Part shown: piece by piece, positions 23,256-43,632 of the stretch
Position numbering within the stretch: position 1 is the first letter of the stretch
How the letters are laid out: every line of letters starts with the position of its first letter
DNA from: Thermoplasmata archaeon
GTDB lineage: Archaea > Thermoplasmatota > Thermoplasmata > Lutacidiplasmatales > UBA184
DNA: 43,718 nucleotides
Reading direction: 5' to 3'
Assembly: GCA_021812305.1 (NCBI GenBank)
Contig: JAKAOB010000003.1
Coordinates: 1 to 43,718 of the forward strand
Translations under genes and position numbers: made by a program
The notes under the pieces: generated by a model
Seen by the model: only the letters and a program-made list of their open reading frames with translations
Database searches by the model: none
What the model was told of the DNA's origin: nothing

Positions 23256-23447
23256 CTCTCCCCCCGCCTGCGGCCCCTGCCCGGAGGCCGCGGGTCGCAG
23301 AGGCTCCTCGAACAGAAACGGAGGGGGTCAAGGTCGCTTGACGCGACCGCCCGGCCGGGCCCGCGGGAGCGCGGCCTTCGGCGCGGCGACGATGCGTCAC
23401 CCCTGCTTCACTTGAACTTCTTGCTCCCGGTGTTCGTTCGTCCTCCC

Positions 23448-26400
23448 ATGCCGCCGAGCCATCTGTCGAGCGTACGCTCCGCCTTTTCCCGAACGGCCCG
23501 TGGGAGCTTTCCGTGGGTCCTCGCCGTCCTCTTCGCCCTGCCCCTCGGAGGGCTGCTTCCCGGAGTCGGCCCGGCGACCGTGTCGCCCACCTGGGCGGAC
23601 GGGACCGCCGAAGCCTCCTCCGCGATCGATGCCGCGCCGCCCTCCTCGGCCGATGGGGGGCTCTCCAACGTAGCGTCGGTGAGCGCCGATCCGGCCGTGC
23701 CGGTCCTACCGGCGCGCGGGGGTCCGGGGGGCGGCGGAGGGGGCCATGGCAACGAGACCGCGACCAACGGGACGTGGGTGTCCGTGACGCAGGCCCGCTG
23801 CTGCGGGGGATTCACCTACGATCCGATCATCGGACAAACGGTCCTCTTCGGTGGTGGCGCCGCCGAGGCGCTCGGAGACACCTGGGAGTACCGTGCCGGC
23901 ACGTGGACCCGCGTCCTGATCTCCTCCAGCCTGAGCGTGCACAACAACATCGCCATGACCTACGACCCGCAGGACGGCTACGTCCTTCTCTTCGGCGGGA
24001 TCCGCGGCAACCACTACCTGGCCGAAACCTGGGCGTTCCAGTACGGCGCGTGGACCCTGCTGAGCCCGTCGAACGCCCCGGCGGCGCGCCTCGGGGCCAC
24101 GATGGTCTACGACGCCGCCGCCCGCTCGGTCATCCTCTTCGGCGGGTACGATGGCTCGACCTACTACAACGACACCTGGCGCTACGCCGGCGGCGTGTGG
24201 ACGCCGCTCACGCTTCCGGTCTCGCCGTCCCCTCGGGACAACGCCTCGATGGCCTACGACCCGGTCCAGGGCGCCGTGATCCTCTTCGGTGGCCGCGCGA
24301 GCACGGGGATCCTCGGGGACACCTGGGCCTTCTCGGACGGTGCGTGGGCTCCGCTCGCGCCGACCGCCAACGGAAGCCCGTCGGCCCGGGAGCTCGGCGC
24401 CATGGCCTGGGACGACGGCAGCCAGTCCGTGGTGCTGATGGGCGGGCGCACCCCGACGGGGGTCCTCGGCGATATGTGGACCCTCGCACGCGGCGCCTGG
24501 GCCCCCGGCCCCTCGGGCCCGTCGGCCCGTGCGGGCGCCATGATGACGTACGATGGCGCGGACCGTTACCTCCTCCTCTTCGGCGGGACCACCGGCGGCG
24601 GGGTGCTGGCCGACAGCTGGACCTTCGTCGACGGGGTCTGGACCCGGATCGGTGCGGGCGGCGCGCCGGTCGGGCGCACCGGGGCGAGCCTCGCGATCGA
24701 TCCGCCGACCGGCGATGCGATCCTCTTCGGTGGGTGGGACGGGGCGAGATACCTCGGGGACACCTGGAGCTACTCCGGTGGGAACTGGACCCTCCTGTGC
24801 TCCACGGGCTGCGGGCCCGTGCCGCGGAGCGACGCGGGGTTCACGTACGTCGTGTCGAACTCCACCACCGGGGCGGGCTATCTGCTCCTCTACGGCGGCT
24901 TCAACGGGGCCTTCCTCAACGACACGTGGGCCTTCCGGGCCGGCCAGTGGTCCTCGATCAATGCCACCGGCGCGCCGTCGCCGCGCATGGGGATGGTCCT
25001 CGCCTCCGACGGCGCAGGACCCGTCGCCTTCCTCTACGGCGGGCTCGGTCCCTCCGGCTATCTCGCCGACACCTGGTCGTTCAACGCGACCGACGGGATG
25101 TGGTCCGCGGTATCGAACGCGGGAGGCGGGGGCCCGTACACCCCGGACGCCCGTGCGTTCGCGTCGACGGTCTACGATCCGACGACCGACGCGATCCTCC
25201 TCTTCGGCGGGCGCGACTCGGCAGGATATCTCGGCGACACTTGGGAGATCGACCTTCCCGGCGCCGAGGGCGGGGCGACCTGGAGCGACCCGGTCGTATC
25301 GACCTCGACCCCGCCGGCCCGGGCCAACGCGACCCTCGCGTGGGACGACGACGCCCCGTTCTCCAATGCGCTGCTTCTCGGGGGGACGAGCGGCACCACC
25401 GCGGGCACGGACGTCCTGGACGACATCTGGGTCTTCGCCGCCGGCACCTGGACCCACGTACCGACCCCCCCGGCCGGGGGCATGGGAGGGGAGGAGGCCA
25501 GCTCCCCGGCGCCTCGCACCGGCGCGAGCGCCGTGTACTCGCCGTCGGACGGCTACCTGCTGTTCTTCAGCGGCTTCAACGGCACGGCGATCACGGCCGA
25601 CACCTGGCTCTGGGTGATCTTCCTCGCGCAGCCGGTCGCGAGCCTTGCCCCGGCCGACGCGGGGGTCCCGGTCCTGTTCCACGCCGCGCTGTTCGGCGGC
25701 GTCCAGCCGTACACGTACTATTGGGCGTTCGGTGACGGGGCGACCAGCACCGCCCCCACCCCCAGCCACGCGTTCGCCGCGACGGCCCCGACCCTCTACG
25801 ACGTGTACGTCGTGGTCAACGACTCGGCGGGCAACTCGAGCGCGATGGAGGTTCCGATCGTCGTCCACCCGGGGCTCTCCGCCGTCGCCACCCTCAGCGC
25901 ATCGACCGTCGATGCCGGCGTAGCGGTGACCTTCAGCGCCGAGGTGAGCGGCGGAGCCCCACCCGTCCGCACGACCTGGGGGTTCGGCGACGGAAGCCGT
26001 GGGTTCTCCGCCCGCCTCACCCACGTCTACGCCGTGCCCGGAGACTACTCGATCCGGCTTTGGACGAACAGTTCGGGCGGCGGTGCGCTGGCCCAGACGC
26101 TGGCGCTGACCGTCGTTCCCCGCCCGACCGTGTCGGTCGCGACCTCCCTCGTCGAGACCGATGTCGGTGTGCCCGTTTCGTTCACCGCGACGGTCGCCGA
26201 CGGTGTGGCGCCGCACGCCTTCACCTGGTCGTTCGGCGACGGAGGCACATCGGCCGAGGCGCTCCCCAGCCACGCGTACGCCACGCCGGGGACCTACACC
26301 GTCGACGTGGAGATCACCGACGTGTTCGCTGCGAACGCGAGCGCGATGACGACCGTCCTCGTGAACCCTCGCCCCGCGATCTCCGCGGTCGCGGCGGCCC

Positions 26401-27017
26401 CCGCCATCACCGATGTCGGCTACCCGGTCAGGCTCGAGGCGTCCGGCGCCGGGGGAACCGGAGGGCTGGCCTGGACGTGGACCTTCGGGGACGGGGCGGC
26501 CGCGGCCGGCGCGGCGCCGTCCCACACGTACGCGACGGCCGGATCGTTCCTCGCGCAGGTCTGGGCCAACGATTCGCTGGGCGTCGTTGCCTACGCGAAC
26601 CTCTCGGTCCTGGTCGTCCCCCTGCCGCGGATCACGTCGTTCTCAGCGGACCCCGCGTCGATCCACCTCGGGGAACCGGCGACGCTCTCGGCGGCGGTCG
26701 CGGGGGGCGTCGGCCCCTACACCTACCTCCTGAGCGGGTTGCCCCCGGGCTGCTTGTCGGAGAACACCGACACCGTGTCGTGCCTGCCGAACGCGACCGG
26801 GACGTTCACGGTGACGATGTACGTCTCCGACACGCTCGGGGCGCAGGACTCGGCGGTCCTCACCCTGACCGTCCAGCCCGTGACCACGGAGCCGACCGTC
26901 CTCGGGATGCCGCCGACCTGGGGCTACGTCCTGCTCGGGTTGATCGTGGGGTTCGTGGCACTGGACGTGGTACTCCTCTACACCGTCGTGCGCGGACGCC
27001 GCCGCGGAGGTGCCTGA
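23448..27017 (+). CDS. Kelch-repeat and PKD-domain surface protein
   Basis: A 1189-residue anchored protein. A signal segment (about residues 23-45) is followed by twelve Kelch-type repeats at about 110-735, each ending in a motif like LLFGG followed by 10-20 residues and DTW. Twelve repeats would make two six-bladed propellers. Four PKD domains follow, each with a 'WxFGDG' motif (YWAFGDG, TWGFGDG, TWSFGDG, TWTFGDG), then a fifth Ig-like domain without that motif. A C-terminal helix (WGYVLLGLIVGFVALDVVLLY) and RGRRRGG tail anchor it. Propellers and PKD arrays usually mediate binding outside the cell. I use the ATG at 23448; a TTG at 23412 is in frame but would precede the signal peptide with an extra hydrophobic stretch. 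Confidence 0.87.
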   Translation: MPPSHLSSVRSAFSRTARGSFPWVLAVLFALPLGGLLPGVGPATVSPTWADGTAEASSAIDAAPPSSADGGLSNVASVSADPAVPVLPARGGPGGGGGGHGNETATNGTWVSVTQARCCGGFTYDPIIGQTVLFGGGAAEALGDTWEYRAGTWTRVLISSSLSVHNNIAMTYDPQDGYVLLFGGIRGNHYLAETWAFQYGAWTLLSPSNAPAARLGATMVYDAAARSVILFGGYDGSTYYNDTWRYAGGVWTPLTLPVSPSPRDNASMAYDPVQGAVILFGGRASTGILGDTWAFSDGAWAPLAPTANGSPSARELGAMAWDDGSQSVVLMGGRTPTGVLGDMWTLARGAWAPGPSGPSARAGAMMTYDGADRYLLLFGGTTGGGVLADSWTFVDGVWTRIGAGGAPVGRTGASLAIDPPTGDAILFGGWDGARYLGDTWSYSGGNWTLLCSTGCGPVPRSDAGFTYVVSNSTTGAGYLLLYGGFNGAFLNDTWAFRAGQWSSINATGAPSPRMGMVLASDGAGPVAFLYGGLGPSGYLADTWSFNATDGMWSAVSNAGGGGPYTPDARAFASTVYDPTTDAILLFGGRDSAGYLGDTWEIDLPGAEGGATWSDPVVSTSTPPARANATLAWDDDAPFSNALLLGGTSGTTAGTDVLDDIWVFAAGTWTHVPTPPAGGMGGEEASSPAPRTGASAVYSPSDGYLLFFSGFNGTAITADTWLWVIFLAQPVASLAPADAGVPVLFHAALFGGVQPYTYYWAFGDGATSTAPTPSHAFAATAPTLYDVYVVVNDSAGNSSAMEVPIVVHPGLSAVATLSASTVDAGVAVTFSAEVSGGAPPVRTTWGFGDGSRGFSARLTHVYAVPGDYSIRLWTNSSGGGALAQTLALTVVPRPTVSVATSLVETDVGVPVSFTATVADGVAPHAFTWSFGDGGTSAEALPSHAYATPGTYTVDVEITDVFAANASAMTTVLVNPRPAISAVAAAPAITDVGYPVRLEASGAGGTGGLAWTWTFGDGAAAAGAAPSHTYATAGSFLAQVWANDSLGVVAYANLSVLVVPLPRITSFSADPASIHLGEPATLSAAVAGGVGPYTYLLSGLPPGCLSENTDTVSCLPNATGTFTVTMYVSDTLGAQDSAVLTLTVQPVTTEPTVLGMPPTWGYVLLGLIVGFVALDVVLLYTVVRGRRRGGA

Positions 27018-29758: not shown

Positions 29759-29983
29759 ATGACCGGAGAATCGATGGCGGCCGGGACGACGATGACCTTC
29801 AAGACCCCGGGAACACCGGAAGGGATGCGCCGGGCGATCCTCCTGTCGATCCTGGGGCCGGTCGCGTGGTTGTGCTTTACCCTGGTCTATGTAGGGTTCT
29901 GGGCGCAGGGGTTCACCCTGTTCCAGAGCATCGTGGTCGTCCTGACCTCCCTGGTCGCCCTGGCGGGCGTCATGGGGGGGTAG
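29759..29983 (+). CDS. Small two-helix membrane protein
   Basis: A 74-residue protein from the ATG at 29759: a polar N-terminus of about 25 residues, then helix 1 (ILLSILGPVAWLCFTLVYVG) and helix 2 (FQSIVVVLTSLVALAGVMGG), ending in Gly-Gly-stop. Such two-helix proteins are common and mostly uncharacterised in Thermoplasmata. It has chromosome-like GC-rich codons and is the last gene before base composition drops, so it marks the left shoulder of the island. Confidence 0.6.
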   Translation: MTGESMAAGTTMTFKTPGTPEGMRRAILLSILGPVAWLCFTLVYVGFWAQGFTLFQSIVVVLTSLVALAGVMGG

Positions 29984-30127
29984 TACCATAGGGGGTCGAA
30001 ATGACACCCCCCACCCCTCTCACGAAGCGTCCTTCATCTCAAGGGATTGCCGCAAGCCAGTCCCGTCGCGAGCGAGTGGCTCAACGGGTCAGGCTGGAGG
30101 CGGTTCTTGCCGCGTTCGCCAATGAGC

Positions 30128-33100
30128 CTATGACGGCTCTGGGTCCCAAGCGGTCACGCCGTGAACGCCAAAAGCTAGGGTGAAACGCACTGGGTCGCCA
30201 CGATGCAATGGAACGCTACCTGGCCGTCTCGGATTGAAGAACAAATCCAGCCCGAGATTCGGAACGTTGTGCGGATAAACGGATCCGACGCTTTCGTAGG
30301 TCACTTCCTTAACCCGGCCGGTGAAAATCTTTCGATGGCCGCCCTCCCGGATGAAGTAAAGATATGGGCGTGAAATCAACTTCGGCGTCCCCCTTCGAAT
30401 CTCGCCGAGCAACCGCCTGACCTCCGCGCCTCTTTCTGCGCCGACCAACGCTGTTGCTCGCTGCACCAAGTCAAGCCAACTAAGTTGCCACCGCTTCGGA
30501 TGCTCGGAGCAGGCTCGGCCGATCATATCGGAAAGGATCACCGCCTTAGGGTACGAAGGATTGTCCGCTTTGAGTTCGGTTTCCAGGCTCGCGCGAAAAG
30601 CCGGCACGCACGGACTCTTGGCGCCTACTGCCGCTTCGAGATAGCGCCGGGCGTCTGCTATTCTATTCGACTGCTCCGCTCGCTGATACAATAGGAAATA
30701 CCCAAAACCTGTACCCTGAGACTTGAGCAGACTCTCAGCAAGGGCGTCGTCCAGTTCCCCGGCGTCGTCGGCGAGGCGTGCCATCTGGTCAGTCAGGAAT
30801 GCGTCAGTATTGCCGGACGCCTCCCATCCCTCCTGCAGCACGCCCAGCGCTTCTCCAAGCAACGAAATGCGCTTGGGTCCCTCCGTTCTGCCTGCCAAGT
30901 CACGCAGCACTCGCGCTTCAACGCCGTACGAGTGGGAATTCCATCTGGTCCCCGTCCTCGACTCGCGCAGGAGCTCCCTGATACGAAGGACCTCGGAGGA
31001 CTGTTCGAGACCGGGCAACTCCTTGCCCTCATAGCTCTTCCAAAGAGCGTCGGCGCGAGTCGTCTGAATGATCTCCAGCCGTTCAGTAGGGGGCTCCTCC
31101 ATCCGGGCGAGAGAGATCGCATCGTCCAGCGTCGCCAGCGCAGCGGCGTACTGTCTATCGTCCAGCAGCCTGATTCCCTGATGATGCCGGAGCAGCGAAG
31201 TCATTCCACGCGATTCTAAGCGTTGGAAAAGGTTGAGAATCGTCTGACGATCTGCGATTGTGTCGACTGGGGTCTCCCGCTCCTGCCGGCCAGGTCGGCC
31301 GACAAGAAGGTCGGCCACAAACTGGTGTTCCGCTCCGCTATCCAAATTGACCGCCCCCAGGATAGTCTCCAGCGCAGAGAGGATGGTTGGTCCTCCGCCC
31401 AGCTCCTGTGAAACAAGCTCGCCGAATCTGGAATGGAAAAACGAGACCGTAGGAGTGGGCGGGACCTCATCAACCGTCAAGATTTGGGCACACTCATCTA
31501 TGCGCGTGAACAGCTCTCCGTAGTCACATCTGAGTGCCTTTGCGAGGACTGGGAGCGGGACTGGAGTCCTTCCGAGGGTCGAGAGGAGGGCTAGTCTGAC
31601 TACTGCTTGCGCACCTGCGCTGAGGTTCAAGACCGACTGCCGTGCGATATCTTGGAAACTCTTCCGAGATTCGTCGACCAGTCGGTACATCAACTCGATG
31701 AACGTCCGGTCAGCGCTCACCTGTGATTCGAGTTCCGCGCGCGACCAACGGAAGGGTCGAACTGTTGGATCAAGCTGGTCGACATAGTCCGTGAACGGGC
31801 CAATTTCGTTCGCCTCAATCGAGTCCGGGACCCGAATCTGACAGACTTCGATTCCGAACTCTCGAACGCGATCCGGATCAATCGGCTCATACGCAACCGA
31901 AATCACTAGAACATCCGCAAAACCCCGCCACTGAAGAGAATTGATGAGGCTTCGAGCATTTTCGCCCCGGACCTGATCATCTAACAAGACAGTCAAAAAG
32001 GTCCGCCGATCTTCGCTCGTTGAACGAGCCAACTTACCGAACGCCACAACTGAGTCCTCATCAGGGGTGGCTGCACGCTGTCCGAGTCGAAGCCCGACGG
32101 ATGGAAACTCTCGAACTGCCGAGAATAGTGCCGCGTTGGCAGCGACTGTTTTCCCCGAGCCGGGCCGGCCGTAGAGGTGAATCAGAGCTGGTGGGCGAGG
32201 ATCTAGTGAAACCCACTTTGTAACGAAGGCTCGCTCTTGGCGTATGAGTTCGCGGTTCCACTCGAGTCGGTTCGAGTAAGGGCCTAGCTCGGACGTTCTT
32301 CCTCTGAAGAAATCCTTCGGGGGACACTTCCGTTCGAGCTCCAGCTGGGTGACTGGGTCAAACTGTCGGAGAAGGTCGGTCACCCGAGCCGCGTCTATGG
32401 AAAGGGTTCGGTCTCCAAAGGCGAGAACAAGTTGGGTCTTCTCAACGGTCCTGTCCACTTCCTCAGACAGTCGCCGAGCAAATTCGGCTGCGGGTTCGAC
32501 GATTGGTTCGATTCCTAGGATCCCGAATCGCCGCTTCCTTTCGTCGTTGGGATCGGATCGAAAAAGAGCGCGAATGGGAATCCTAGACCTCGAGGCGAGC
32601 CCTCTGATGACCTCAGCGGACTTTTCGAGGATTCCATCGTCGAAACTGTATCCGATTGCGAGAACCCCAGTGGCACGGACGAACTCGTCCAAGTGCTCGA
32701 ACATCAAATGGTTCTCGCGCTCCTTTCTGGCGATGTCCGCGCTACTGAGCGCCATCTGACCGCCTGAGTCAATTGGCGCCGTTCGGCAGCCCATAATCTT
32801 GAAGATCGGAACCGTTCCGGGGGTGACGAACATCACCCTGCGTGCATCCACGTAGACGATTGGCTTGACCATTCTCCCGTCGCGATAGTGGTCCTCGATC
32901 GCTGTGTCGAAATTAGTCGTGTAGACGGCCGACCAGGGCAGATCCAAGATCGAGCCGAGTTCAGCGCTCGCTCTGACGTTCGCGAGACGCTTTGCTACGG
33001 AAGCATACACCTCGGACCTTCGGCCGAGGCGAATGCAAATGTCATCCAAAGTATTGCGTGGGCTTTCTTGGGCCGGGACTCCCATTTCATTGGCGACCCA

Positions 33101-33214
33101 AGCCGCCAAATCTCCCCATGATGCTCCGCCGGAGTCGGCGGTCATGCCCGCTCCTACAAACAGAACGCCGCCGCCGTTGCGGATGTCCTGCGCGAGAGTA
33201 TCAATCAACCCCAA
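30128..33214 (-). CDS. SIR2-STAND-TPR protein, Avs5/DSR-like anti-phage candidate
   Basis: A 1028-residue protein with clearly lower GC than its left neighbours. Residues 1-240 are a SIR2-like domain: VLFVGAGMTADSGGASWGDL, the catalytic-Asn motif YTTNFDTAIEDHY, and LAIGYSFDDG. The usual K-x-H-G motif with the catalytic His reads FKIMG, so His is replaced by Met. A STAND-type NTPase follows with Walker A LYGRPGSGKTVAAN at about 345-355. The C-terminal 380 residues are TPR-like helices, probably the sensor. Related proteins destroy NAD+ after sensing phage; with this change NADase activity is doubtful. Start is a TTG at 33214, with no better in-frame start upstream. It abuts the casposon polymerase, both leftward. 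Confidence 0.82.
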   Translation of the reverse strand: MGLIDTLAQDIRNGGGVLFVGAGMTADSGGASWGDLAAWVANEMGVPAQESPRNTLDDICIRLGRRSEVYASVAKRLANVRASAELGSILDLPWSAVYTTNFDTAIEDHYRDGRMVKPIVYVDARRVMFVTPGTVPIFKIMGCRTAPIDSGGQMALSSADIARKERENHLMFEHLDEFVRATGVLAIGYSFDDGILEKSAEVIRGLASRSRIPIRALFRSDPNDERKRRFGILGIEPIVEPAAEFARRLSEEVDRTVEKTQLVLAFGDRTLSIDAARVTDLLRQFDPVTQLELERKCPPKDFFRGRTSELGPYSNRLEWNRELIRQERAFVTKWVSLDPRPPALIHLYGRPGSGKTVAANAALFSAVREFPSVGLRLGQRAATPDEDSVVAFGKLARSTSEDRRTFLTVLLDDQVRGENARSLINSLQWRGFADVLVISVAYEPIDPDRVREFGIEVCQIRVPDSIEANEIGPFTDYVDQLDPTVRPFRWSRAELESQVSADRTFIELMYRLVDESRKSFQDIARQSVLNLSAGAQAVVRLALLSTLGRTPVPLPVLAKALRCDYGELFTRIDECAQILTVDEVPPTPTVSFFHSRFGELVSQELGGGPTILSALETILGAVNLDSGAEHQFVADLLVGRPGRQERETPVDTIADRQTILNLFQRLESRGMTSLLRHHQGIRLLDDRQYAAALATLDDAISLARMEEPPTERLEIIQTTRADALWKSYEGKELPGLEQSSEVLRIRELLRESRTGTRWNSHSYGVEARVLRDLAGRTEGPKRISLLGEALGVLQEGWEASGNTDAFLTDQMARLADDAGELDDALAESLLKSQGTGFGYFLLYQRAEQSNRIADARRYLEAAVGAKSPCVPAFRASLETELKADNPSYPKAVILSDMIGRACSEHPKRWQLSWLDLVQRATALVGAERGAEVRRLLGEIRRGTPKLISRPYLYFIREGGHRKIFTGRVKEVTYESVGSVYPHNVPNLGLDLFFNPRRPGSVPLHRGDPVRFTLAFGVHGVTAWDPEPS

Positions 33215-33342: not shown

Positions 33343-36021
33343 CTAGCTGTGGGCGGCTCCGTTCAAGATATGGGCGACCCGCTCGAGCAGCCCTCCCCGG
33401 TACCCCCTCACGACCTCCCCCTTCCTCAGCCTCTTCCTGAGCCTCGCGAAGTTCCTCTTGTCAATCCCATGCTCAGTGGCCCAAGAGAGAGGCAGGGCGA
33501 GGATTCGTTCGGCCCAAGGAACGTAGACCTTCGCCCGTGCTCCGGTCGGACCGACGCCCAGAACCCGGGCTGTCTCGATTCGGTTCGCCTCCTTGCCGAT
33601 CCCGTGGGTCCGGGACCTTCGGACCAGGACGTTCCGCCGAACCATCCGGCCCCCCGCGTCGCGCCCGCATTTCCGGTCCTCGTGCTCCGCGAAAGCCTCG
33701 ACCACTGAGCTCCAGTCTCTCTGACCAGGTAGTCCCATGAGCGCATCCCGGCCTACGGTGTCCTCCTTGGAGAGGTAGGGGACGAGCTCGGATCTCCACC
33801 CATCAACGGCCGCAGACGGCTCGATGTAGCGAGCCGTCATGAACGAGAATGGCCGGATCGACCCGAGGCGTTTCACCCGTGGCAAGAGCATCGGGGTCGA
33901 CAGGGAGAACTGCGCCGTGGCCGGAATCCCGACGAACCGCTTACCCGCACTCGGCCCCTCCTCAATGATCGCCTCCCAGACGTGCGCGATGAACTCCTTC
34001 CGCTCCCCGGCTACCTCGAAGGATCCTAGGCCGTGGTCAGACGCGGATTTCCGAAAGACGTGGGGCCGGCCGTGACGGTCTCGGACGAAGAGGCAGTAGC
34101 GTTTACAGGAGAGGCCATAGAACGATGGGGCGACGGCCGGAGAACCCGCCGGATACTGTTCTCGCGGGGCCTTCTCGCCAGTCTCGTCCTTCAAGAAGTG
34201 GGTCGGGATGGCGTAGGGATTGAGCGAGTCAAAGACCCGAGTGACCTCCGGAGCGATTCGGGAAGGCGTGACGAAGACCGAGTCGGTGTCTTCGTAAACG
34301 ACCTCGCCGCCGTTCGACTGGACAACCACTTCTGCCAAAGCAAGCAGCAGATGCGAGGCGGAGGTGAGGGTCGCCCCGAGGAGCGGGCAGTAGAAGTCGC
34401 CGACCTCCTCCGTCTCAGAGTCCTCCCACTCGAACGGGTCGTCGGTGAGGCCGTGAATCGTTGAGGTGCCGGCCCCTCGCTTCCGGTTCACTTCAACCGA
34501 GATCCCGTAGGCCAGCGCGTTGGAGAGGATCTTCAGCCCTTGGGCGCGAGACTCCCATCCCAGCGTTTTCGTCGCCTTCTCCCGGATGCGCTCCTCGGAG
34601 AGCTTCCGGACCATGTCCTCCTCGGACCCGATGTCGACGCCGAGCAGCCGGATCGGGCGAACTGCCTGCCGGCGGACGGGCTCGAACGTGGTCGCCCGGA
34701 CGATGCGCGGGACCCGGCCCGATTGCAGCTTTGCGGCGATGAGGTCCGGAACCAGGTAACGAAGTGTCGTCCCGGGCTCCGAGGTGACATGATTCCAGCC
34801 GATGGTCGGGGGCTGCGAGGGGTCTCCGTTGTAGGTCGAACGGACTGGGAGAATCTCGCCCCGGGCCTCGACTTCGCAGAGGGTCCACATCCGGAGGTCC
34901 AGCCACGTCTCGCGACGGAGCAGGTCCGCGACTGTCAGGGAGTCCAGCCACGACCGGACCTCCCCAGTGGAATCGCGGGTCCGGAGGCGCTTGCCGGTCA
35001 GGAACTGGTCGGCGGCCAGCAGGCAGTAGAGCGATGGGAACTCGGAGGTGAAATCGAGGACGGCTACGTCAGGGACCTCGCGTCCGGCGACCCGGCACTC
35101 GACCTTACCCGCGTAGAACGCGGACATGACCCACCCGGTCCAGTCCGCCGAAAGCTGGGGTGGCACGATGCCCCGGGCGCGAAGAGCCGCCTTCGCGAGG
35201 GAAGCTGGGGAGAAGAGGCGCGTCGGGTGCTCCTCGACGCCGAAGGCCCGATACCGGGCGACGCACTTCTCGTAGAGCTCGTAGGTGAGAGCCACATCAT
35301 TGAGCGCGTAGTCGAGATACCGGGCGTCGACAGGGCCGTGGTAGTCGGTCCTGGTTTTCTTCCGCGCGCATCCGAACGCAGTCCCCGCGGACTCGAGCGA
35401 GTGCCTCTCGCCCGTCAGCACATGAACGAAGGTCCGCAGGTCCAGGAAGGCTCCTCGATAGCGGCGCCAGCGGTTCTTGGTCCCGGCGAAGGCGATGAAC
35501 GACTTTGTCGAGTCGACGCGTTGGACCCGGATGTTCGGAATGTGCCCGGACTCGGGGTCGGACCGTTGGACGAGTCGGAGCGTGAAGTGCTCCTTAGTCC
35601 CGATCCTCTCCCTGGGGGCCCAGTCGACGGCCAGCCGCGCGAGGTCGAAGGGCAGGTTGAACCCGACGACGATGGCCTGCATCTCGAGCGCCAGGGGGAC
35701 GAAGAGCTTCCGGACGAAGCGGTCGAGCGTGAGCACGTCCGCGTCGTGCGCCTTCGCCCACGCGGCAACCGACCGGGCCTCGGCCTCCGTCAGCCTTCCG
35801 GTGAAGACGATGGTCCGGCAGAGGTGTCCGAGGGCGTACTCGCGGGCGATCCCGAAGCGGAGCTCCTGCTGGAGATCCGTCGTCGTTTCGGTGTCGAGGA
35901 TGAGAACCAGATCGGCGTTGGGGGTCTCCGGTTCGGGGCGCACTCGCTTCGAGGATTGCTTGGGCTTGGAGTGGACCCGAACGTAGACCGGCGGCTCTTC
36001 GAGCGTTGCGGCTGCGTTCAT
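33343..36021 (-). CDS. Casposon family B DNA polymerase with 3'-5' exonuclease
   Basis: An 892-residue family B polymerase. The exonuclease motifs are present: LDTET (D43, E45), GFNLPFD (N122, D126) and YALND (Y238, D242). Polymerase motif A reads VLDFTSEFPSLY (D323), a variant of DxxSLYP. Motif B is K497 in LKILSNALAYG and motif C is YEDTDS (D578, D580). All catalytic carboxylates are retained, so it should copy DNA and proofread. I see no long TPR1/TPR2 insertions of protein-primed polymerases, which fits the second casposon polymerase lineage, from Euryarchaeota. Its ATG overlaps the HNH gene's stop (ATGA). Middle GC content, between host and SIR2 gene. Confidence 0.9.
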   Translation of the reverse strand: MNAAATLEEPPVYVRVHSKPKQSSKRVRPEPETPNADLVLILDTETTTDLQQELRFGIAREYALGHLCRTIVFTGRLTEAEARSVAAWAKAHDADVLTLDRFVRKLFVPLALEMQAIVVGFNLPFDLARLAVDWAPRERIGTKEHFTLRLVQRSDPESGHIPNIRVQRVDSTKSFIAFAGTKNRWRRYRGAFLDLRTFVHVLTGERHSLESAGTAFGCARKKTRTDYHGPVDARYLDYALNDVALTYELYEKCVARYRAFGVEEHPTRLFSPASLAKAALRARGIVPPQLSADWTGWVMSAFYAGKVECRVAGREVPDVAVLDFTSEFPSLYCLLAADQFLTGKRLRTRDSTGEVRSWLDSLTVADLLRRETWLDLRMWTLCEVEARGEILPVRSTYNGDPSQPPTIGWNHVTSEPGTTLRYLVPDLIAAKLQSGRVPRIVRATTFEPVRRQAVRPIRLLGVDIGSEEDMVRKLSEERIREKATKTLGWESRAQGLKILSNALAYGISVEVNRKRGAGTSTIHGLTDDPFEWEDSETEEVGDFYCPLLGATLTSASHLLLALAEVVVQSNGGEVVYEDTDSVFVTPSRIAPEVTRVFDSLNPYAIPTHFLKDETGEKAPREQYPAGSPAVAPSFYGLSCKRYCLFVRDRHGRPHVFRKSASDHGLGSFEVAGERKEFIAHVWEAIIEEGPSAGKRFVGIPATAQFSLSTPMLLPRVKRLGSIRPFSFMTARYIEPSAAVDGWRSELVPYLSKEDTVGRDALMGLPGQRDWSSVVEAFAEHEDRKCGRDAGGRMVRRNVLVRRSRTHGIGKEANRIETARVLGVGPTGARAKVYVPWAERILALPLSWATEHGIDKRNFARLRKRLRKGEVVRGYRGGLLERVAHILNGAAHS

Positions 36022-36452
36022 GCGGTCGCCTTGGCTGCTTCGGCGTACTGCGCTCGGAGCCGTTTTCCGGTCTCGTGGAAGGCGTAACCCTCGAACCGAG
36101 CCCGTTCTTCGCAGAGGTCGCTCAGCCCTCGAAGCACGAAGGTCGCCTTCAGTTCGGGCGGGTTGTTCTCCCGCTCCCAGCGTGGGTCCCAGCCATTCTG
36201 CCGTTCCGATAGCCGATTGTGACAACGCTCGCAGACAGGGACCGTGACCTCCGAGTTGAACTTCCCCGCGATGTGGTGGGCCTGAGTATCGACTCGCGAG
36301 TCGCAGACCGCGCAGCCGTTTGCCCCCTGGGCCCCCGACTTCACCCACTCGACCCACGCCGAAACAGTTCCGATCTGGCGAGGGACCCTGGCCCGGACGC
36401 CTTCGATAGCCCGGCCGAGGTTGGCAGTGGGATCGGGGACCGAGTCGCTCAT
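36018..36452 (-). CDS. HNH endonuclease of the casposon operon
   Basis: A 144-residue HNH nuclease. CAVC (C47, C50) and CERCHNRLSE (C74, C77, H78, N79) form the zinc knuckle, and AHHIAGKF (H59, H60) supplies the catalytic His pair of the beta-beta-alpha-metal fold. It would cut DNA with a divalent metal. HNH nucleases are a common part of casposons, next to the polymerase. The ATG at 36452 overlaps the upstream gene's stop and its own stop overlaps the polymerase start, both as ATGA, so translation is coupled. The C-terminal 45 residues are an alpha-helical tail rich in Arg and Ala. Confidence 0.87.
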   Translation of the reverse strand: MSDSVPDPTANLGRAIEGVRARVPRQIGTVSAWVEWVKSGAQGANGCAVCDSRVDTQAHHIAGKFNSEVTVPVCERCHNRLSERQNGWDPRWERENNPPELKATFVLRGLSDLCEERARFEGYAFHETGKRLRAQYAEAAKATA

Positions 36453-37144
36453 CCGATTTCGTCGGCCTCCTCGGGCTCCGCGTAGAGGTCGCCGAACGCT
36501 CCGAAGTCCGCCTCGGATCGTTCGAGGGCCGCGCGCAACTTCCTGGGGTCGGTTTCGAAGGTGTGGAACTTGCCGGCGACGTCGACGTACGTCCGTCCTT
36601 CGAACTCCTTGAGTCGGCTCGCGTCGCCGGTTTCGAAGTAATGGCGAACGGCGTTCGCGTAGCGAGAGAGCAGCGTCGCCGTCTTCGAGTCGCCGACCAG
36701 GAAGGACCGCCGCGCGCCATGCTCGTAGGTCTGAAGGTATCGCTGGATCCGGTCGGAGCGTGTCGCTACCCAACGGCTTCCGCGCTTCTGGAAGGCCCCG
36801 CTGGCCCTCCGAACGGTCTTGGGCGAGATCCCGGCCTTTCGGGCGAGCTTGGAGAGGGAACCCTCGCCCCGGCGCACCCGAGAGACGACTTCCAAAGCCC
36901 GTTCACGATGAGCCCGTTCGCGTGGGGTAAGCTGGGTAAAGGGAAGACGGAACGCCGGAGCCCGAGGAACAGCCGATAGCGGCCGCTGTTCAGTCCGGGG
37001 GTGCCTTCGGAGCTGACTGAGGGTCGCGGTCGGATACCGGGCGTGGGTTCGGGCGATCCTGGCGGCGTAGGGGGTTCGTTGCGGCTGCCCGGCAGCCCAT
37101 TGCTCGTAGGACGCGTACTTCCGCGAGAAACGGCGGGGAGGCAT
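36449..37144 (-). CDS. Helix-turn-helix protein of the casposon operon
   Basis: A 231-residue basic protein. A helix-turn-helix lies at about residues 95-120 (GSLSKLARKAGISPKTVRRA, of the resolvase/homeodomain-like kind). The region at about 128-190 (RSDRIQRYLQTYEHG, then SRYANAVRHYFETGD) resembles C-terminal domains seen in archaeal mobile-element HTH proteins, though I cannot name the family. It probably binds element DNA, at the ends, at the origin or at its own promoter. Its ATG lies one base after the stop of the 84-residue HTH gene, and its stop overlaps the HNH start, so all four genes form one unit. Confidence 0.7.
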   Translation of the reverse strand: MPPRRFSRKYASYEQWAAGQPQRTPYAARIARTHARYPTATLSQLRRHPRTEQRPLSAVPRAPAFRLPFTQLTPRERAHRERALEVVSRVRRGEGSLSKLARKAGISPKTVRRASGAFQKRGSRWVATRSDRIQRYLQTYEHGARRSFLVGDSKTATLLSRYANAVRHYFETGDASRLKEFEGRTYVDVAGKFHTFETDPRKLRAALERSEADFGAFGDLYAEPEEADEIG

Positions 37145-39712: not shown

Positions 39713-39874
39713 GTGCCTCGCACGACTTACTCGGTCACCGGGTGGGAGTGCTTGCGGTGCGGGCACAAGTGGGTTCCAAGAATCTCGCGTGAGCCGAAGC
39801 GGTGCCCGGGGTGCAAGAGCCCTTACTGGAATCGCACCCGAACGCATCCGTCGCGGCCCGTCCGTCCGGTATGA
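39713..39874 (+). CDS. Small zinc-ribbon protein heading the Cas4-like operon
   Basis: A 53-residue protein from a GTG. GWECLRCGHKW (C13, C16) and RCPGCKSPYW (C31, C34) make a classic zinc ribbon; the remaining tail is basic and Pro-rich. Similar short ribbons occur widely in archaea as probable DNA- or RNA-binding partners. Its TGA overlaps the ATG of the Cas4-like gene (ATGA), which argues that it is real and co-translated. It may be an adaptor or regulator of the nuclease module. Confidence 0.7.
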   Translation: MPRTTYSVTGWECLRCGHKWVPRISREPKRCPGCKSPYWNRTRTHPSRPVRPV

Positions 39875-40887
39875 CAAACAGCAAGGGATTGCGGCGGAAG
39901 AGTCTCCGTCGCTTTCGTTCAACGAAGTTCGCTAAGGTCGGGGCGAAGGGTCCGACTCCCCGGGTTGGCCGCTTGATCAAGGCGCCAGAACCATCGAATC
40001 CACCGCCAGACTTGCCACTTGGCTCGGACGGGGTCAGCCCGACCGATCTACGCCTCGTTGAGCTCTGCCCATTACAACTCTGGCATGCAGCGCGATGGCC
40101 GTCGGAGACGGCTGCCCCTTCACTGGGCCTGGCGATTGGACAAATCGTGCATGCCGCCAGAGAGGCGATCTCGATGGAGCAGCGAGGAATCTACCTCCAA
40201 GCAGAATCTGAATCCAAGTTATGGAATGAAGACGTTGAGGCGCGGCTGAGAGCGCTGATTGAGTCTACCTTCGAGCGCCACTACTACCTCCATGTCTTCG
40301 GCGACCCGGCCGCTCGGGCAAGGTCAGAATGGACCGGCCGCCTCCTTGGCATGGAACGGGGGAGGGCCGATAGGGCTCGTGACGCTTGGAATCTTGGGCT
40401 GAGGGGCGTCGACCTCGCGAACGCCTGCACACCAGAGCGAACCGAAGCAGAATGGTTCGACTCGGGCCTGAGGATGCACGGATTCTGCGATGAGCTCTGG
40501 CGGGACGGCACGAAGTCCCGGCCTGTCGAGCTAAAGACGAGCCCACCGAATGATGCGAATCGGTCAGCAAACCGGTACCAGGTCGCGGCGTATGCATACT
40601 TGGCTCAGAACGTAGAAGGACTGGTGGTGAGTACGTGCGAAGTGCAATATCTTCGCGAGGGCTCCTCCGACAGATTCAGGTTCGGGCCCGCCTGGGAAGG
40701 TAAAGTGCGTCGGCAAGCCCATCGAGTGATGCTGGTGCGTCACTCGCTGGATCCGCCGACCGGTGCCCCGTCGCCACAAACATGTGGGTGGTGCCCGTTC
40801 CAGCAAGTATGCCCCCAGTCCGCCGCACCGTCGGTTGATGATGCTTTCGCTAGCCTCAAGGTTTTCGACGACTTCGGGGGCCGTTGA
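39871..40887 (+). CDS. Cas4-like PD-(D/E)XK nuclease with 4Fe-4S cysteines
   Basis: A 338-residue nuclease of the Cas4/RecB-nuclease group. C66 (ELCPLQLWH) with C305, C308 and C314 (TCGWCPFQQVC) give the four Fe-S-cluster ligands. The active-site set is H94 (GQIVHAA), D207 (HGFCDELW), E220-x-K222 (VELKT) and Q236 in the RYQVAAYAYL helix. It is expected to trim single-stranded DNA ends. It is longer than CRISPR Cas4 (about 200 residues); the extra part is a basic N-terminal tail and an insert at about 100-190. The ATG at 39871 overlaps the zinc-ribbon stop; its own stop overlaps the TTG of the HerA-type gene. Lower GC than the chromosome. Confidence 0.85.
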   Translation: MTNSKGLRRKSLRRFRSTKFAKVGAKGPTPRVGRLIKAPEPSNPPPDLPLGSDGVSPTDLRLVELCPLQLWHAARWPSETAAPSLGLAIGQIVHAAREAISMEQRGIYLQAESESKLWNEDVEARLRALIESTFERHYYLHVFGDPAARARSEWTGRLLGMERGRADRARDAWNLGLRGVDLANACTPERTEAEWFDSGLRMHGFCDELWRDGTKSRPVELKTSPPNDANRSANRYQVAAYAYLAQNVEGLVVSTCEVQYLREGSSDRFRFGPAWEGKVRRQAHRVMLVRHSLDPPTGAPSPQTCGWCPFQQVCPQSAAPSVDDAFASLKVFDDFGGR

Positions 40888-43157
40888 TTAATGTGACCGC
40901 GAGCGACTGCCGGCAGCAGGCAAGGCGCGTTGCAGAAAGTGTCTGGCGCGCGCTCCATCGGTCTCGGCCCTTGAGTTCAGAAGATGTGCAGCGGAAGGTT
41001 CGGGAAATCGGACTGCTCGAGTCGTCGAGGCTTGGCGAGCCAGATCATGACGCGCTAGCCCAGTTCTGCGAGTGGCTTTCATCGAGGATCATTCAGGAGG
41101 CGGGACCAGCAGGCAAGTATCGACAGCTCGACGTACACCGAGGAGTCGTGAGACTCTTCGGGCAATCCCCTTCCTTCTCCGATCCTGAGTTCGACATAGT
41201 TTCGAACATCGGAAAACAGACTTCGGTGTGGCGGTTCGACTCGGTCGGTAGCAGGCGCGACCTCCATGTCCTGACTCCTGGGACGCTCGAGCGCGTTTCC
41301 AGAGGCACCGAGGGACCTGTCTCGATCACGCAGGTAGTCCTTGGCAACCGGACGCAAGCGCTGCAGGTCGAGTCATTTGTGGCTGCACCCGAGAGGCATG
41401 AATCGCGAGGTGCAAGCGAGCAGGTGAAGGAGGACGCCAGAGATATCCCAGCCAAAGCTTCCGAGAGAAGAAGTCCTCCTGATGACGGCTCGAGGGAAGG
41501 CTCGACTCTCGACTCTGCTGCGAAGTCCCCAGCGGGCGGGGGTAACCGAATCGAAGCTTCACGAGGAAGCGCGAGACAAGTGGACTCAACTCACACCCCT
41601 ACCGAGGACGGGGTGATCGGCGCCATCGGGCCGTCACCGCCGACAATGAGCCGTGCCGGCGGGTATGTTGTAAACGGCATCCTCTATGTGCCCGAGATAC
41701 CGAACATTGCGGTCACGAAAGGGCTCCCGGTTATCGCAGAGTCACATAGCGACCCGTCTAACCCGAAATCTCCGCTCATTCGGGTGTTCGCCCGAATCGG
41801 GCAGACCACGGTCGAAACCTCAAGCACGATTGAGCGAGCTCCAACGAGCACGACGTACGTTGATAGTACGTTCGAGATCTTGCGCGAGGCATACCCTGCG
41901 TCCGAACAGGGCGCCGAGATTCGCCCTTGGACCCCGAAGGCAATGGGAGGTTACCGTCTGCGGTGGCCGCGTACTCAAGACCTTTCCCTGATGGGCTTCC
42001 CCGACTCTGGCGTCTGCCTCGGCTGGCAGGAGGGGGTACCCACAAGGCTCCAGTATTGGTTCCCGGTGGAGGCAATCTACAGATCGCTGTTCGTTGTCGG
42101 AGGAATGGGCGGAGGAAAGACCAACTTCATTTCGTGCCTCGCCCGCGCGATCGCAAACCGAGATCCGGCCGCCTTCCCTCATAGCCTTCGGCCGGCGGTT
42201 GTAATCCTCGATGCTGAGGGCAGAAAGGAGTACGCAGACCTAGCGACCGAAGTCCGGCCCGAGCTTCGCCGCTCCCTCGAGGAGCTCGGAATCGCCCCTC
42301 ACGGCGTGAGGGATTTCAGATACCACTCGATAGGGACGAAGGCTCGAAGCTTCCGGTTTGCAGACATTCCGCCTCAGGATACCGTGGTGTTCCCCGCCAC
42401 GCTTCCGACAAAGTCGGAGAGGGCGTGGATTCAGGGTGCTGAACTCTTCTGGAGGCATGCCCAAGCTGCCCAAAGATCGGTGACGGCGGCCCAGGCGACC
42501 GCTGCCATCGCTGGAGTGAACCTGCCGCTCGGAATCAACACTGCGATGAGAGCAGCAATTGTACGCGCTGCGTCGGATAGCTGCTGGGATGTGTTTGATC
42601 TTCCCGAGACCGAGCCCCTAACTGTGGACGAGCTCCTACAGCCGGGCCGGGTGTCTGTCGTCGATGTGTCCAACCTCCTGGGCGGGGACAGAATCCGCGC
42701 CGCGGGCCTCGCTCTCCTGACACTCTTTGACGTGGCGAAACGCCGGCAGCCGCAGCACCCGTGCCCGATCATCTTGATCGTAGACGAGGCGACGCGCTTG
42801 GTCCCCGCTGGATTTAGCGGCGCGAGCGCCAAGGACTATACCGACAAGATGGGAAAGTGGCTGACAGAGATTCTTCATCGTGGGCGACGCGCGAGCTACG
42901 GTCTCGTCTTGGCAACTCAATACCCCGACGACGTGTTGAGGGGCCTGGCCGACCAGCCCCAGACCAAAGTGGCCTTCGCGCTGGCCCCTCGCTACGACCG
43001 GTGGGTCGACACGAACTTCTCAGACGGTGCGGGTGAACGGCTCCGGGAGCTGGCTTCTCCTGGAGTCGGATACGTGGCCCGCACCGCACGCGTGGAGGGC
43101 GATCCCCAAGGCGTCCCACATCCGGCCACCGTGATTCACTTCCCACAGGTACGGTAG
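40884..43157 (+). CDS. HerA/FtsK-type P-loop ATPase, likely DNA translocase
   Basis: A 757-residue protein. Residues 1-150 are a helical and beta N-terminal domain of unknown kind. Residues about 175-255 are a polar, low-complexity linker. The ATPase has Walker A VVGGMGGGKTNFIS (about 403-416), an acidic VVILDAEGRKEY near 435, Walker B PCPIILIVDEATRLVP (about 627-642), and a late LVLATQYPDDVL with polar sensor residues, in the HerA-FtsK order. It probably forms a hexamer that pumps DNA. HerA ATPases usually pair with a nuclease; here the Cas4-like and NYN genes are the candidates. The TTG at 40884 overlaps the previous stop; a GTG at 40893 is an alternative start. Confidence 0.83.
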   Translation: MINVTASDCRQQARRVAESVWRALHRSRPLSSEDVQRKVREIGLLESSRLGEPDHDALAQFCEWLSSRIIQEAGPAGKYRQLDVHRGVVRLFGQSPSFSDPEFDIVSNIGKQTSVWRFDSVGSRRDLHVLTPGTLERVSRGTEGPVSITQVVLGNRTQALQVESFVAAPERHESRGASEQVKEDARDIPAKASERRSPPDDGSREGSTLDSAAKSPAGGGNRIEASRGSARQVDSTHTPTEDGVIGAIGPSPPTMSRAGGYVVNGILYVPEIPNIAVTKGLPVIAESHSDPSNPKSPLIRVFARIGQTTVETSSTIERAPTSTTYVDSTFEILREAYPASEQGAEIRPWTPKAMGGYRLRWPRTQDLSLMGFPDSGVCLGWQEGVPTRLQYWFPVEAIYRSLFVVGGMGGGKTNFISCLARAIANRDPAAFPHSLRPAVVILDAEGRKEYADLATEVRPELRRSLEELGIAPHGVRDFRYHSIGTKARSFRFADIPPQDTVVFPATLPTKSERAWIQGAELFWRHAQAAQRSVTAAQATAAIAGVNLPLGINTAMRAAIVRAASDSCWDVFDLPETEPLTVDELLQPGRVSVVDVSNLLGGDRIRAAGLALLTLFDVAKRRQPQHPCPIILIVDEATRLVPAGFSGASAKDYTDKMGKWLTEILHRGRRASYGLVLATQYPDDVLRGLADQPQTKVAFALAPRYDRWVDTNFSDGAGERLRELASPGVGYVARTARVEGDPQGVPHPATVIHFPQVR

Positions 43158-43158
43158 A

Positions 43159-43632
43159 ATGCTGGTAACAGAGGACTCACAAGACAGGGTAATGGTCTTC
43201 ATCGATCTTGCAAATGTCCAGCGCTCGGTTCGATCCAAGGAGTCTAGTGGTTTCCGGCTGGATTACTACAGACTAGTGAAGGAGCTCGTCGGCCCACGGC
43301 GGCTAATCGGTGCGTACGTCTTCGATGCAGTCTCCTCGGCAGATCGAACATCTATAGAGCCCAAGAAACGCCTTCACGACGCCCTTCGGTACCTTGGATT
43401 CCGCGTAGTCGCAAGAGAAGTTGCCTTCGAAGAGGAGGGCCAGCAAAAGGAGGTGGATGTCGCCCTCGCCACCGAGATGCTCGTGGCCGCCCTCAGAAAT
43501 GCGTTCGACGTCGCGATTCTTGTTTCCGGAGATCGCGACTTCGTCCCGGCGGTAGAGCGGCTGAGGACAGAGGGAAAGCGCGTCGAGGTTGCCTTCTTTG
43601 GCGGATCGGTTGAAAACGAGGTACGTGTTTAG
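43159..43632 (+). CDS. NYN-domain (LabA-like, PIN-type) nuclease, possibly truncated
   Basis: A 157-residue NYN domain: VMVFIDLANVQ (D16, N19), KEVDVALATEML (D100) and ILVSGDRDFVPAVERL (D125, D127) supply the acidic metal-binding pocket of this RNase-like fold. It starts one base after the HerA-type stop, so it belongs to the same operon. LabA-like proteins normally continue past this point with a last helix of the kind 'L..AAD.FI.L'; here the frame stops right after VEVAFFGGSVENEVRV. That stop is 20 bases from the end of a GC-rich host gene, so the C-terminus may have been cut at an element boundary. It would cut RNA or single-stranded nucleic acid. Confidence 0.85.
   Translation: MLVTEDSQDRVMVFIDLANVQRSVRSKESSGFRLDYYRLVKELVGPRRLIGAYVFDAVSSADRTSIEPKKRLHDALRYLGFRVVAREVAFEEEGQQKEVDVALATEMLVAALRNAFDVAILVSGDRDFVPAVERLRTEGKRVEVAFFGGSVENEVRV

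What the first reader, a model, noticed from the sequence alone, without database searches (positions are those of the whole stretch)
30128..33214. SIR2-STAND-TPR protein whose catalytic His is Met
The SIR2 domain keeps GAG and TTNFD motifs, but the K-x-H-G motif of NAD-degrading defence SIR2 proteins reads K-I-M-G. The codon is ATG in FKIMG at about 32795. In ThsA and DSR proteins this His is needed for NADase activity. Either this protein uses another residue, only binds NAD or a derivative, or is a decayed defence gene with an otherwise intact Walker A and sensor.
Basis: partly seen in the sequence, partly recalled or inferred. Interest (0 to 1): 0.6.

Follow-up and report, generated by a model that had tools for sequence, protein, structure and literature searches.

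The report
Archaeal immune-like protein missing catalytic histidine
A large virus-sensing type of protein, carried by an archaeal jumping element and built like the core of the human antiviral protein SAMD9, has lost the histidine that related proteins use to destroy NAD, and distant archaeal cousins have lost it too while keeping the rest of the protein, so it looks like a working variant and not a broken gene.

Summary
The 1028-aa protein (30128-33214, minus) has SIR2, STAND, TPR and OB/cold-shock-like parts. Its K-x-H-G motif reads K-I-M-G (codon 32792-32794), 40 residues after the catalytic Asn, the same spacing as N112/H152 of ThsA. It is not decay: the best full-length relative, from a Bathyarchaeota MAG (23% identity), also has FKIMG, and two further archaeal relatives have Leu. 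The four form one group in trees (SH-aLRT 99; 97 with the SIR2 domain removed). All four keep GAG, TTNxD, K139, G142, D193 and Walker A. No other His is conserved in the pocket stretch. Most other relatives have His (86 of 103 aligned) or Asn (11). Asn is a published functional variant in Avs5, where Ala or Gln abolish defence. The gene is the first one inside the left terminal repeat of a family-2-like casposon. Predicted models of the window protein and its Met-bearing cousin match human SAMD9 (residues ~389-1589) end to end. Most likely reading: a STAND sensor whose SIR2 pocket still binds NAD or a derivative but no longer turns it over by the usual chemistry. Residual or different catalysis is not excluded. 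New variant of a known kind; no experiment exists.

The parts
30128..33214 (-). SIR2-STAND-TPR-OB protein, 1028 aa, TTG start
   Evidence: full-length homology to L110 and to plasmid proteins L004/L006
32450..33214 (-). SIR2 domain (about aa 1-255)
   Evidence: PF13289 at aa 96-236; model aligns to DSR2, ThsA and KomC SIR2 domains over about aa 1-255, Z 21-25, rmsd 2.6-3.5 for the single-domain rows
32912..32914 (-). Asn101 codon of TTNFD (retained catalytic Asn; equivalent, by motif, of ThsA N112, DSR2 N133, Avs5 N110)
   Evidence: column invariant in 103 of 103
32792..32794 (-). Met141 codon (ATG) where the catalytic His is expected
31415..32320 (-). STAND P-loop NTPase and helical part (about aa 299-600; approximate limits); Walker A GRPGSGKT at 32147-32170
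   Evidence: AAA_22 weak in the window; nSTAND_NTPase5 PF25199 in 3 of 4 members of A6; Walker A
30389..31249 (-). TPR-like helical array (about aa 656-942; approximate limits)
   Evidence: helix pairs in the model; TPR_19 in bacterial relatives
30134..30337 (-). C-terminal OB/cold-shock-like domain (about aa 960-1027)
   Evidence: strand pattern in the model; family profile hits CSD proteins such as UNR/CSDE1, E 5e-6 to 6e-5; CSD PF00313 in L006, E 5e-4, below Pfam's cut-off
29976..30012 (+). left terminal inverted repeat of the casposon
   Evidence: 35 of 37 identical to the TIR of the G056 casposon beside tRNA-Val; best of 100 shuffles 25 of 37
33343..36087 (-). casposon family B DNA polymerase (start uncertain)
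   Evidence: 60-69% identical to PolB of G008 and G056 casposons; weak polymerase hits
36018..36500 (-). HNH-like protein of the casposon
   Evidence: phrog_96 HNH E 0.003; 51-61% identical copies in G008/G056 elements
36449..37144 (-). HTH protein of the casposon
   Evidence: HTH_28 E 4.6e-5; homologues in L033 and L035
37146..37400 (-). second small HTH-like protein
   Evidence: weak HTH hits; homologue in L035
38461..39657 (-). casposase (Cas1-solo)
   Evidence: Cas1 E 5e-48; best PDB match 6opm, the M. mazei casposase, E 3e-66 over aa 1-394
39802..40887 (+). Cas4-like PD-(D/E)XK nuclease, cargo or accessory
40884..43157 (+). HerA-like ATPase, cargo
43159..43632 (+). NYN-domain nuclease, cargo

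Best explanation
A stand-alone antiviral STAND sensor carried as cargo by a casposon. Shown: an intact SIR2-STAND-TPR-OB chain; Met at the catalytic His; Met or Leu in three distant archaeal relatives; the rest of the NAD pocket motifs and Walker A retained; location just inside a casposon end. Inferred: the TPR/OB half senses an infection signal, ATP binding by the STAND domain drives assembly, and the SIR2 domain at the N-terminus binds NAD or an ADP-ribose-type ligand but no longer turns NAD over by the usual His/Asn-assisted chemistry. On this view it works as a ligand-gated assembly or regulatory domain, much as the SIR2-like region of SAMD9 may support the neighbouring effector, with killing done by slow residual turnover or by a partner.
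For: Met/Leu group of four intact proteins with SH-aLRT 99, and 97 without the SIR2 domain; the grouping holds when L148/L149 or the window are left out. Window best full-length match is L110, 23% identity, E 5e-38, also KIMG. GAG, T99, T100, N101, D103, K139, G142, G188, D193 identical in 4 of 4. Walker A in 4 of 4. Mutating the position abolishes or lowers activity in DSR2, FAM118 and PaAvs5 for Ala/Gln. End-to-end structural match to SAMD9: window Z 17.9 over 815 residues; L110 Z 23.7, rmsd 8.3 over 885 residues, Foldseek rank 1, E 2.7e-21. TIR and casposase.
Against: The chain carries no other recognisable effector domain, which argues for a SIR2 domain that still acts. The retained Asn/Asp/Lys could mean catalysis and not only binding. 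No ligand, activity or defence was tested. The window sits on a long branch. No partner gene is conserved: L110 lies between housekeeping-type genes (my reading).
Confidence: 0.45

Rival explanations
1. The SIR2 domain is still an enzyme: Asn101/Asp103 activate water and Met/Leu replaces His because the archaeal enzymes use another substrate (NADP, a nucleotide signal) or a less demanding hydrolysis. The protein depletes or processes a nucleotide on activation, as Avs5 does.
For: Asn, Asp, Lys, Gly and Asp of the pocket are invariant in the Met/Leu group. No other effector domain is seen. PaAvs5 shows that His can be replaced, by Asn. Ser and Cys variants also exist in intact proteins, L097 and L107.
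Against: Ala or Gln at this position abolish PaAvs5 defence; H171A lowers DSR2 activity; H206A/H191A prevent FAM118 activity. Met and Leu cannot hydrogen-bond to the ribose as His or Asn can.
Confidence: 0.35
2. Decayed defence gene: the casposon acquired a normal SIR2-STAND gene that is now drifting.
For: Long end branch of the window row, 3.15. Lower GC3 (0.63) than the casposon core (0.80-0.83 for Cas1 and PolB) suggests recent arrival. Only 1 of 106 genomes of the order holds it.
Against: Full 1028-codon frame; Walker A and all other pocket motifs intact. The same Met in an intact relative with 23% identity and Leu in two more. Neutral joint probability of CAY to ATG with no stop is about 4e-8 or less at the five distances tried.
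Confidence: 0.05
3. The protein works only with a partner enzyme encoded beside it (Cas4-like nuclease, HerA-like ATPase, NYN nuclease), making one multi-gene casposon defence island.
For: HerA, PD-(D/E)XK and NYN genes lie in the same element with similarly low GC3, 0.63-0.68. SIR2 and HerA are partners in a known system (8wld).
Against: The genes lie on the other side of Cas1, about 6.6 kb away and on the other strand. The other three Met/Leu proteins were not shown to have such neighbours; in the flanks of L110 I saw none.
Confidence: 0.1

Closest known systems
SIR2-nSTAND5-TPR-CSD proteins of about 1030 aa on bacterial plasmids and chromosomes (e.g. WP_125320575.1 Vibrio pectenicida, WP_283269499.1 Acinetobacter), annotated only as 'SIR2 family protein'
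   Same: length, domain order and full-length homology
   Different: they carry HG (a Bacteroidota/Ignavibacteriota-rich set carries NG, with one Ser and one Cys); the window and three archaeal relatives carry MG or LG
Avs5 (AVAST type 5, SIR2-STAND)
   Same: N-terminal SIR2, STAND ATPase, C-terminal helical repeats; EfAvs5 9jap is the best profile match in the PDB and the models align to 9jap and 9nc9
   Different: Avs5 is shorter (769-869 aa chains), has NG or HG and has no OB domain reported in the passages read; PADLOC Avs5 model E 0.016 for the window and hits 2 of 41 members
SAMD9/SAMD9L core (animal antiviral factor, with bacterial members)
   Same: SIR2-like, STAND-like P-loop, TPR and a cold-shock-like OB fold in that order (PMC5445408); models align end to end with residues about 389-1589
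   Different: no AlbA/tRNase or SAM part before SIR2; Walker A is G-K-T where SAMD9 has G-G-T/S; sequence similarity to SAMD9 was not seen in the PDB sequence searches listed
ThsA (Thoeris) and DSR2
   Same: SIR2 domain fold and GAG, TTNxD, K-x-x-G motifs
   Different: other C-terminal parts; catalytic His present in both
Family 2 casposons
   Same: Cas1 matched along its length, C-terminal region included, to the M. mazei casposase; PolB, HNH, HTH proteins, TIR; three published casposons encode divergent Sir2-like proteins (PMC4046053)
   Different: here the SIR2 cargo is a 1028-aa STAND protein; the published ones were not compared (names and sequences were not in the passages read)

Membership tests
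SIR2-nSTAND5-TPR-CSD family | SIR2_2 domain at the N-terminus | tested here: met
   PF13289 38.4 bits, cut-off 24.5
SIR2-nSTAND5-TPR-CSD family | nSTAND_NTPase5 P-loop domain | tested here: inconclusive
   3 of 4 members of the Met/Leu alignment hit PF25199; the window itself shows only weak AAA hits but has Walker A
SIR2-nSTAND5-TPR-CSD family | full-length homology including TPR and OB parts | tested here: met
   BLASTP to L110 over aa 11-1019, E 5e-38
Avs5 | match to the Avs5 profile | tested here: not met
   PADLOC Avs5 E 0.016
Avs5 | HG or NG catalytic motif | tested here: not met
   MG; motif requirement from PMC12931631 passages
Avs5 | SIR2-STAND-helical repeat architecture | tested here: met
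   models align to 9jap and 9nc9
ThsA / Thoeris | SIR2 plus SLOG with a TIR-domain partner gene | tested here: not met
   C-terminal part is STAND-TPR-OB; no TIR family appears in the Pfam scan of the ten element ORFs. The SLOG/TIR definition is partly recalled
DSR2 | NCBIfam NF041819 above cut-off | tested here: not met
   12.1 bits against a cut-off of 1400
SAMD9 family | variant SIR2, STAND-like NTPase, TPR, OB core | tested here: met
   end-to-end structural alignment of two models
SAMD9 family | AlbA_2/tRNase domain before SIR2 (lost in some members) | tested here: not met
   SIR2 starts at the N-terminus, so no room for another domain before it
SAMD9 family | Walker A with G-G-T/S | tested here: not met
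   GRPGSGKT; feature from PMC5445408
SAMD9 family | significant sequence similarity to SAMD9 | tested here: inconclusive
   not in the list at E <= 0.001 nor among the best 60 of 674
Family 2 casposon | Cas1-solo with C-terminal HTH, of casposase type | tested here: met
   6opm aligned aa 1-394 to 18-411 of 431; the HTH itself was not modelled
Family 2 casposon | PolB, HNH and two HTH genes | tested here: met
   (HNH and second HTH by weak profiles plus homologues in sister elements)
Family 2 casposon | terminal inverted repeats at both ends | tested here: inconclusive
   left TIR found; no second copy in window or assembly
Family 2 casposon | target site duplication | not testable with these tools
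   right end lies beyond the contig; in the sister element of G008 a 12-bp duplication flanks both TIRs

The most novel reading that the evidence does not exclude
An archaeal lineage of SAMD9-core-like STAND receptors in which the SIR2 domain has been turned, by one ancestral loss of the catalytic His, from a NADase into a nucleotide-gated regulatory domain. It would be a prokaryotic parallel to the SIR2-like part of SAMD9, and at least one member moves between archaea on a casposon.
Probability: 0.3. Interest if true: 0.75.

Novelty: new variant of a known kind. Interest (0 to 1): 0.56.

Why it matters
The His of the HG motif was called absolutely conserved in SIR2 domains until Asn was found to replace it in Avs5 (PMC12931631 passages). 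A conserved hydrophobic replacement would be a third state, and a natural test of whether SIR2 domains in immune STAND proteins can work without NAD hydrolysis. The architecture links archaeal mobile-element cargo to the core of SAMD9, whose SIR2-like domain has an unclear role (PMC12331169 passages). It also shows casposons in this lineage carrying defence-type cargo of different kinds.

Tried and rejected
Degenerate-pattern searches with the window protein alone found no relative in genome contigs (62 stretches matched, none confirmed) or viral contigs (16 stretches, none confirmed). tblastn against phage records found nothing. Whole-genome searches with the full protein: 1 of 106 genomes in the order, the window's own; 3 of 389 in the phylum, of which two are single-domain matches. 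Profile searches with A2 gave 5 of 389 and with A6 2 of 364 in the own phylum; the non-own matches inspected there match only in the SIR2 domain and have HG. These samples overlap.

A replacement His was looked for by alignment. His at aa 109, 169 and 174 are not conserved in the Met/Leu group, and no His column is shared by all or most of the group except column 86, which is His in most of the family but Leu in the window.

Long-branch attraction was considered for the Met/Leu group. Leaving out L148/L149, leaving out the window, or removing the SIR2 domain keeps the grouping. All trees are quick trees with SH-aLRT only; the careful search did not finish.

The residue census is biased. L148 and L149 would not have matched that pattern, so Leu-type members are under-sampled. 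Rows dropped before the counts: L050 and L074 (same records as L004 and L006), and L089 and L108 (under 280 aa); L148, L149, L150, L158 were added. The 55-row tree used proteins of 950 aa or more and dropped L050 and L074. The viral scans gave 14 and 1 further loci, of which only L158 was added to the counts.

The right end of the casposon was sought by inverted repeats, TIR scans and a pattern search of the own genome: only the left TIR exists in the assembly. No tRNA lies in the window, so the insertion site differs from the tRNA-Val sites of the sister elements. The general inverted-repeat listing gave only chance-like pairs.

Kinship of L148/L149 to Bathyarchaeota is inferred from their being drawn from the class of G473, the genome of L110.
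Full report
The sequence. ORF 30128-33214 on the minus strand encodes 1028 aa from a TTG start. It holds a SIR2_2 domain (PF13289, E 1.6e-9). ThsA chains align with it so that K139-I-M-G142 lies under their K-x-H-G without a gap. N101 and M141 are 40 residues apart, as are N112 and H152 of ThsA, the numbers given in passages of PMC11263360. The Met codon is ATG at 32794-32792.

Relatives with the same architecture. tblastn found two full-length proteins of the same size on plasmids of Vibrio pectenicida and Acinetobacter. Pfam gives them SIR2_2, nSTAND_NTPase5 and TPR, and a weak cold-shock domain in one. A pattern scan of 84,980 species genomes with alignment A4 gave 80 kept loci of 229 confirmed ones, and a viral scan gave 16. 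Over 103 proteins (window, 96 loci, 6 plasmid genes) the residue at the His position is His 90, Asn 9, Met 2, Ser 1, Cys 1. After dropping duplicates and short pieces and adding four later finds, 103 proteins give His 86, Asn 11, Met 2, Leu 2, Ser 1, Cys 1.

The second Met. The other Met protein is L110, from a Candidatus Bathyarchaeota MAG (JAOZHZ010000004.1): F-I-F-K-I-M-G-T. It is also the window protein's best full-length match in that set of 103 (BLASTP aa 11-1019, 23% identity, E 5e-38). Searching the class of its genome gave matches in 3 of 256 genomes, its own included. The other two genomes gave L148 and L149, which have F-K-L-L-G; a third protein, L150, has Asn. The phylum search gave the same 3 of 329 genomes. 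The own phylum gave no further member (2 of 364: the window itself and a protein that matches only in its SIR2 domain and has HG).

One loss, kept. In a tree of 55 full-length proteins the two Met and two Leu proteins form one set with SH-aLRT 99. With the SIR2 domain cut off the support is 97, so the shared residue does not make the group. Without L148/L149, window and L110 still pair (95); without the window, L110 stays next to L148/L149 in the drawing. The window branch is long (3.15), so its exact place is unsure. All four have open frames of 1028-1072 aa with Walker A. Positions G21, G23, T99, T100, N101, D103, K139, G142, G188 and D193 are identical in 4 of 4. Position E107 is lost in L148, and Y161 in three of the four. 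A neutral calculation gives at most about 4e-8 for CAY to ATG with an open frame at the five distances tried. Decay is therefore unlikely. No replacement His is shared by the group near the motif.

What the residue does elsewhere. In DSR2, Y134A, D135A or H171A lower NADase activity (passages of PMC11263360). In FAM118A/B, His or Asn to Ala prevents activity, and the His is modelled near the 2' and 3' hydroxyls of the ribose (passages of PMC12700824). In PaAvs5 the motif is NG; Asn is better than His, while Ala and Gln abolish protection, and NG is about as common as HG in Avs5 (passages of PMC12931631). Met or Leu offers no such hydrogen bond. This is the ground for expecting loss of ordinary NADase activity, and it is inference.

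Structure. AlphaFold2 with 41 sequences gave the window model a mean pLDDT of 75.8 and pTM 0.57; L110 with 35 sequences gave 80.5 and 0.68. SIR2 parts match DSR2, ThsA, KomC and Avs5 domains. Over the whole chain the best Foldseek hit of both models is human SAMD9 (E 2.3e-19 and 2.7e-21). VIA-align gives window Z 17.9, rmsd 12.8, 815 aligned; L110 Z 23.7, rmsd 8.3, 885 aligned, to SAMD9 residues about 389-1589. TM-scores of the SAMD9 rows are 0.37-0.51, so relative domain placement differs. SAMD9's described core is AlbA, variant SIR2, STAND-like P-loop, TPR and cold-shock-like OB, with some bacterial members (PMC5445408, passages and section 3 part 1). The window protein lacks the AlbA/tRNase part and keeps the Walker A Lys that SAMD9 has lost. 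PaAvs5 was already noted to resemble SAMD9 (PMC12931631 passages).

Context: a casposon. The Cas1 at 38461-39657 matches the M. mazei casposase 6opm along its length (6OPM named in PMC6977970). PolB, HNH and HTH genes lie between it and the SIR2 gene and have counterparts in G008 and G056. The G008 element (L033) has 37-base TIRs at 4344-4380 and 14164-14200 and a perfect 12-bp target duplication beside tRNA-Val. The window carries a TIR at 29976-30012 that matches the G056 TIR at 35 of 37 positions, against at most 25 in 100 shuffles. So the SIR2-STAND gene is the first gene inside the element, on the PolB side. The right end is beyond the contig. Its GC3 of 0.63 is lower than that of Cas1 and PolB (0.80, 0.83), as for the Cas4-like, HerA and NYN genes, so the cargo probably came from elsewhere. 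The G056 element carries two genes that I read as a type III restriction-modification pair (my reading of the ORFs). Three published casposons encode divergent Sir2-like proteins of unknown activity (PMC4046053 passages).

Verdict. The finding is real and better than it looked: not one odd gene but a small archaeal group with a hydrophobic residue at the SIR2 catalytic His. Most likely it is a SIR2-STAND-TPR-OB sensor whose SIR2 pocket binds a nucleotide and no longer hydrolyses NAD in the usual way (0.45). Retained or altered catalysis is close behind (0.35). It works like Avs5/SAMD9-type sensors but fails tests for membership in Avs5, ThsA and DSR2, and meets only the core architecture of SAMD9. 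I found no paper on Met or Leu at this position in the searches (listings and the passages named above), which hold open-licence papers only. A passage search of PMC10474274 found none of the residue names tried.

Noticed in passing
window 39802-43632: Cas4-like PD-(D/E)XK nuclease, HerA-like ATPase and NYN nuclease in a row with low GC3: a possible second defence module of the same casposon.
   Followed up: partly
L033:4344-14200: Complete casposon in a sister genome with two TIRs and a perfect 12-bp target site duplication at tRNA-Val.
   Followed up: yes
L035:7598-12637: Sister casposon whose Cas1-side cargo reads as a type III restriction-modification pair next to its TIR and tRNA-Val.
   Followed up: partly
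L158:7998-11318: NG-type SIR2-STAND protein of 1106 aa in a viral contig with a Mu-like gene set (transposase A- and B-like proteins, portal and terminase-like ORFs; my reading).
   Followed up: partly
L097:4947-8099 and L107:4938-8114: Ignavibacteria/Ignavibacteriota members with Ser and Cys at the catalytic His position, inside the Asn-type group.
   Followed up: partly
L002:526-2205: Own-phylum protein of 559 aa joining a SIR2 domain (KMHGD) to a weakly matched nucleoside deoxyribosyltransferase-like part.
   Followed up: no
window 23412-27017: Large secreted-looking protein with about eight copies of a roughly 147-base repeat; reads as a Kelch/PKD repeat protein.
   Followed up: no
L150 (G569:C13:16890-19526): One genome of the class of L110's host holds both a Leu-type and an Asn-type SIR2-STAND protein.
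   Followed up: partly
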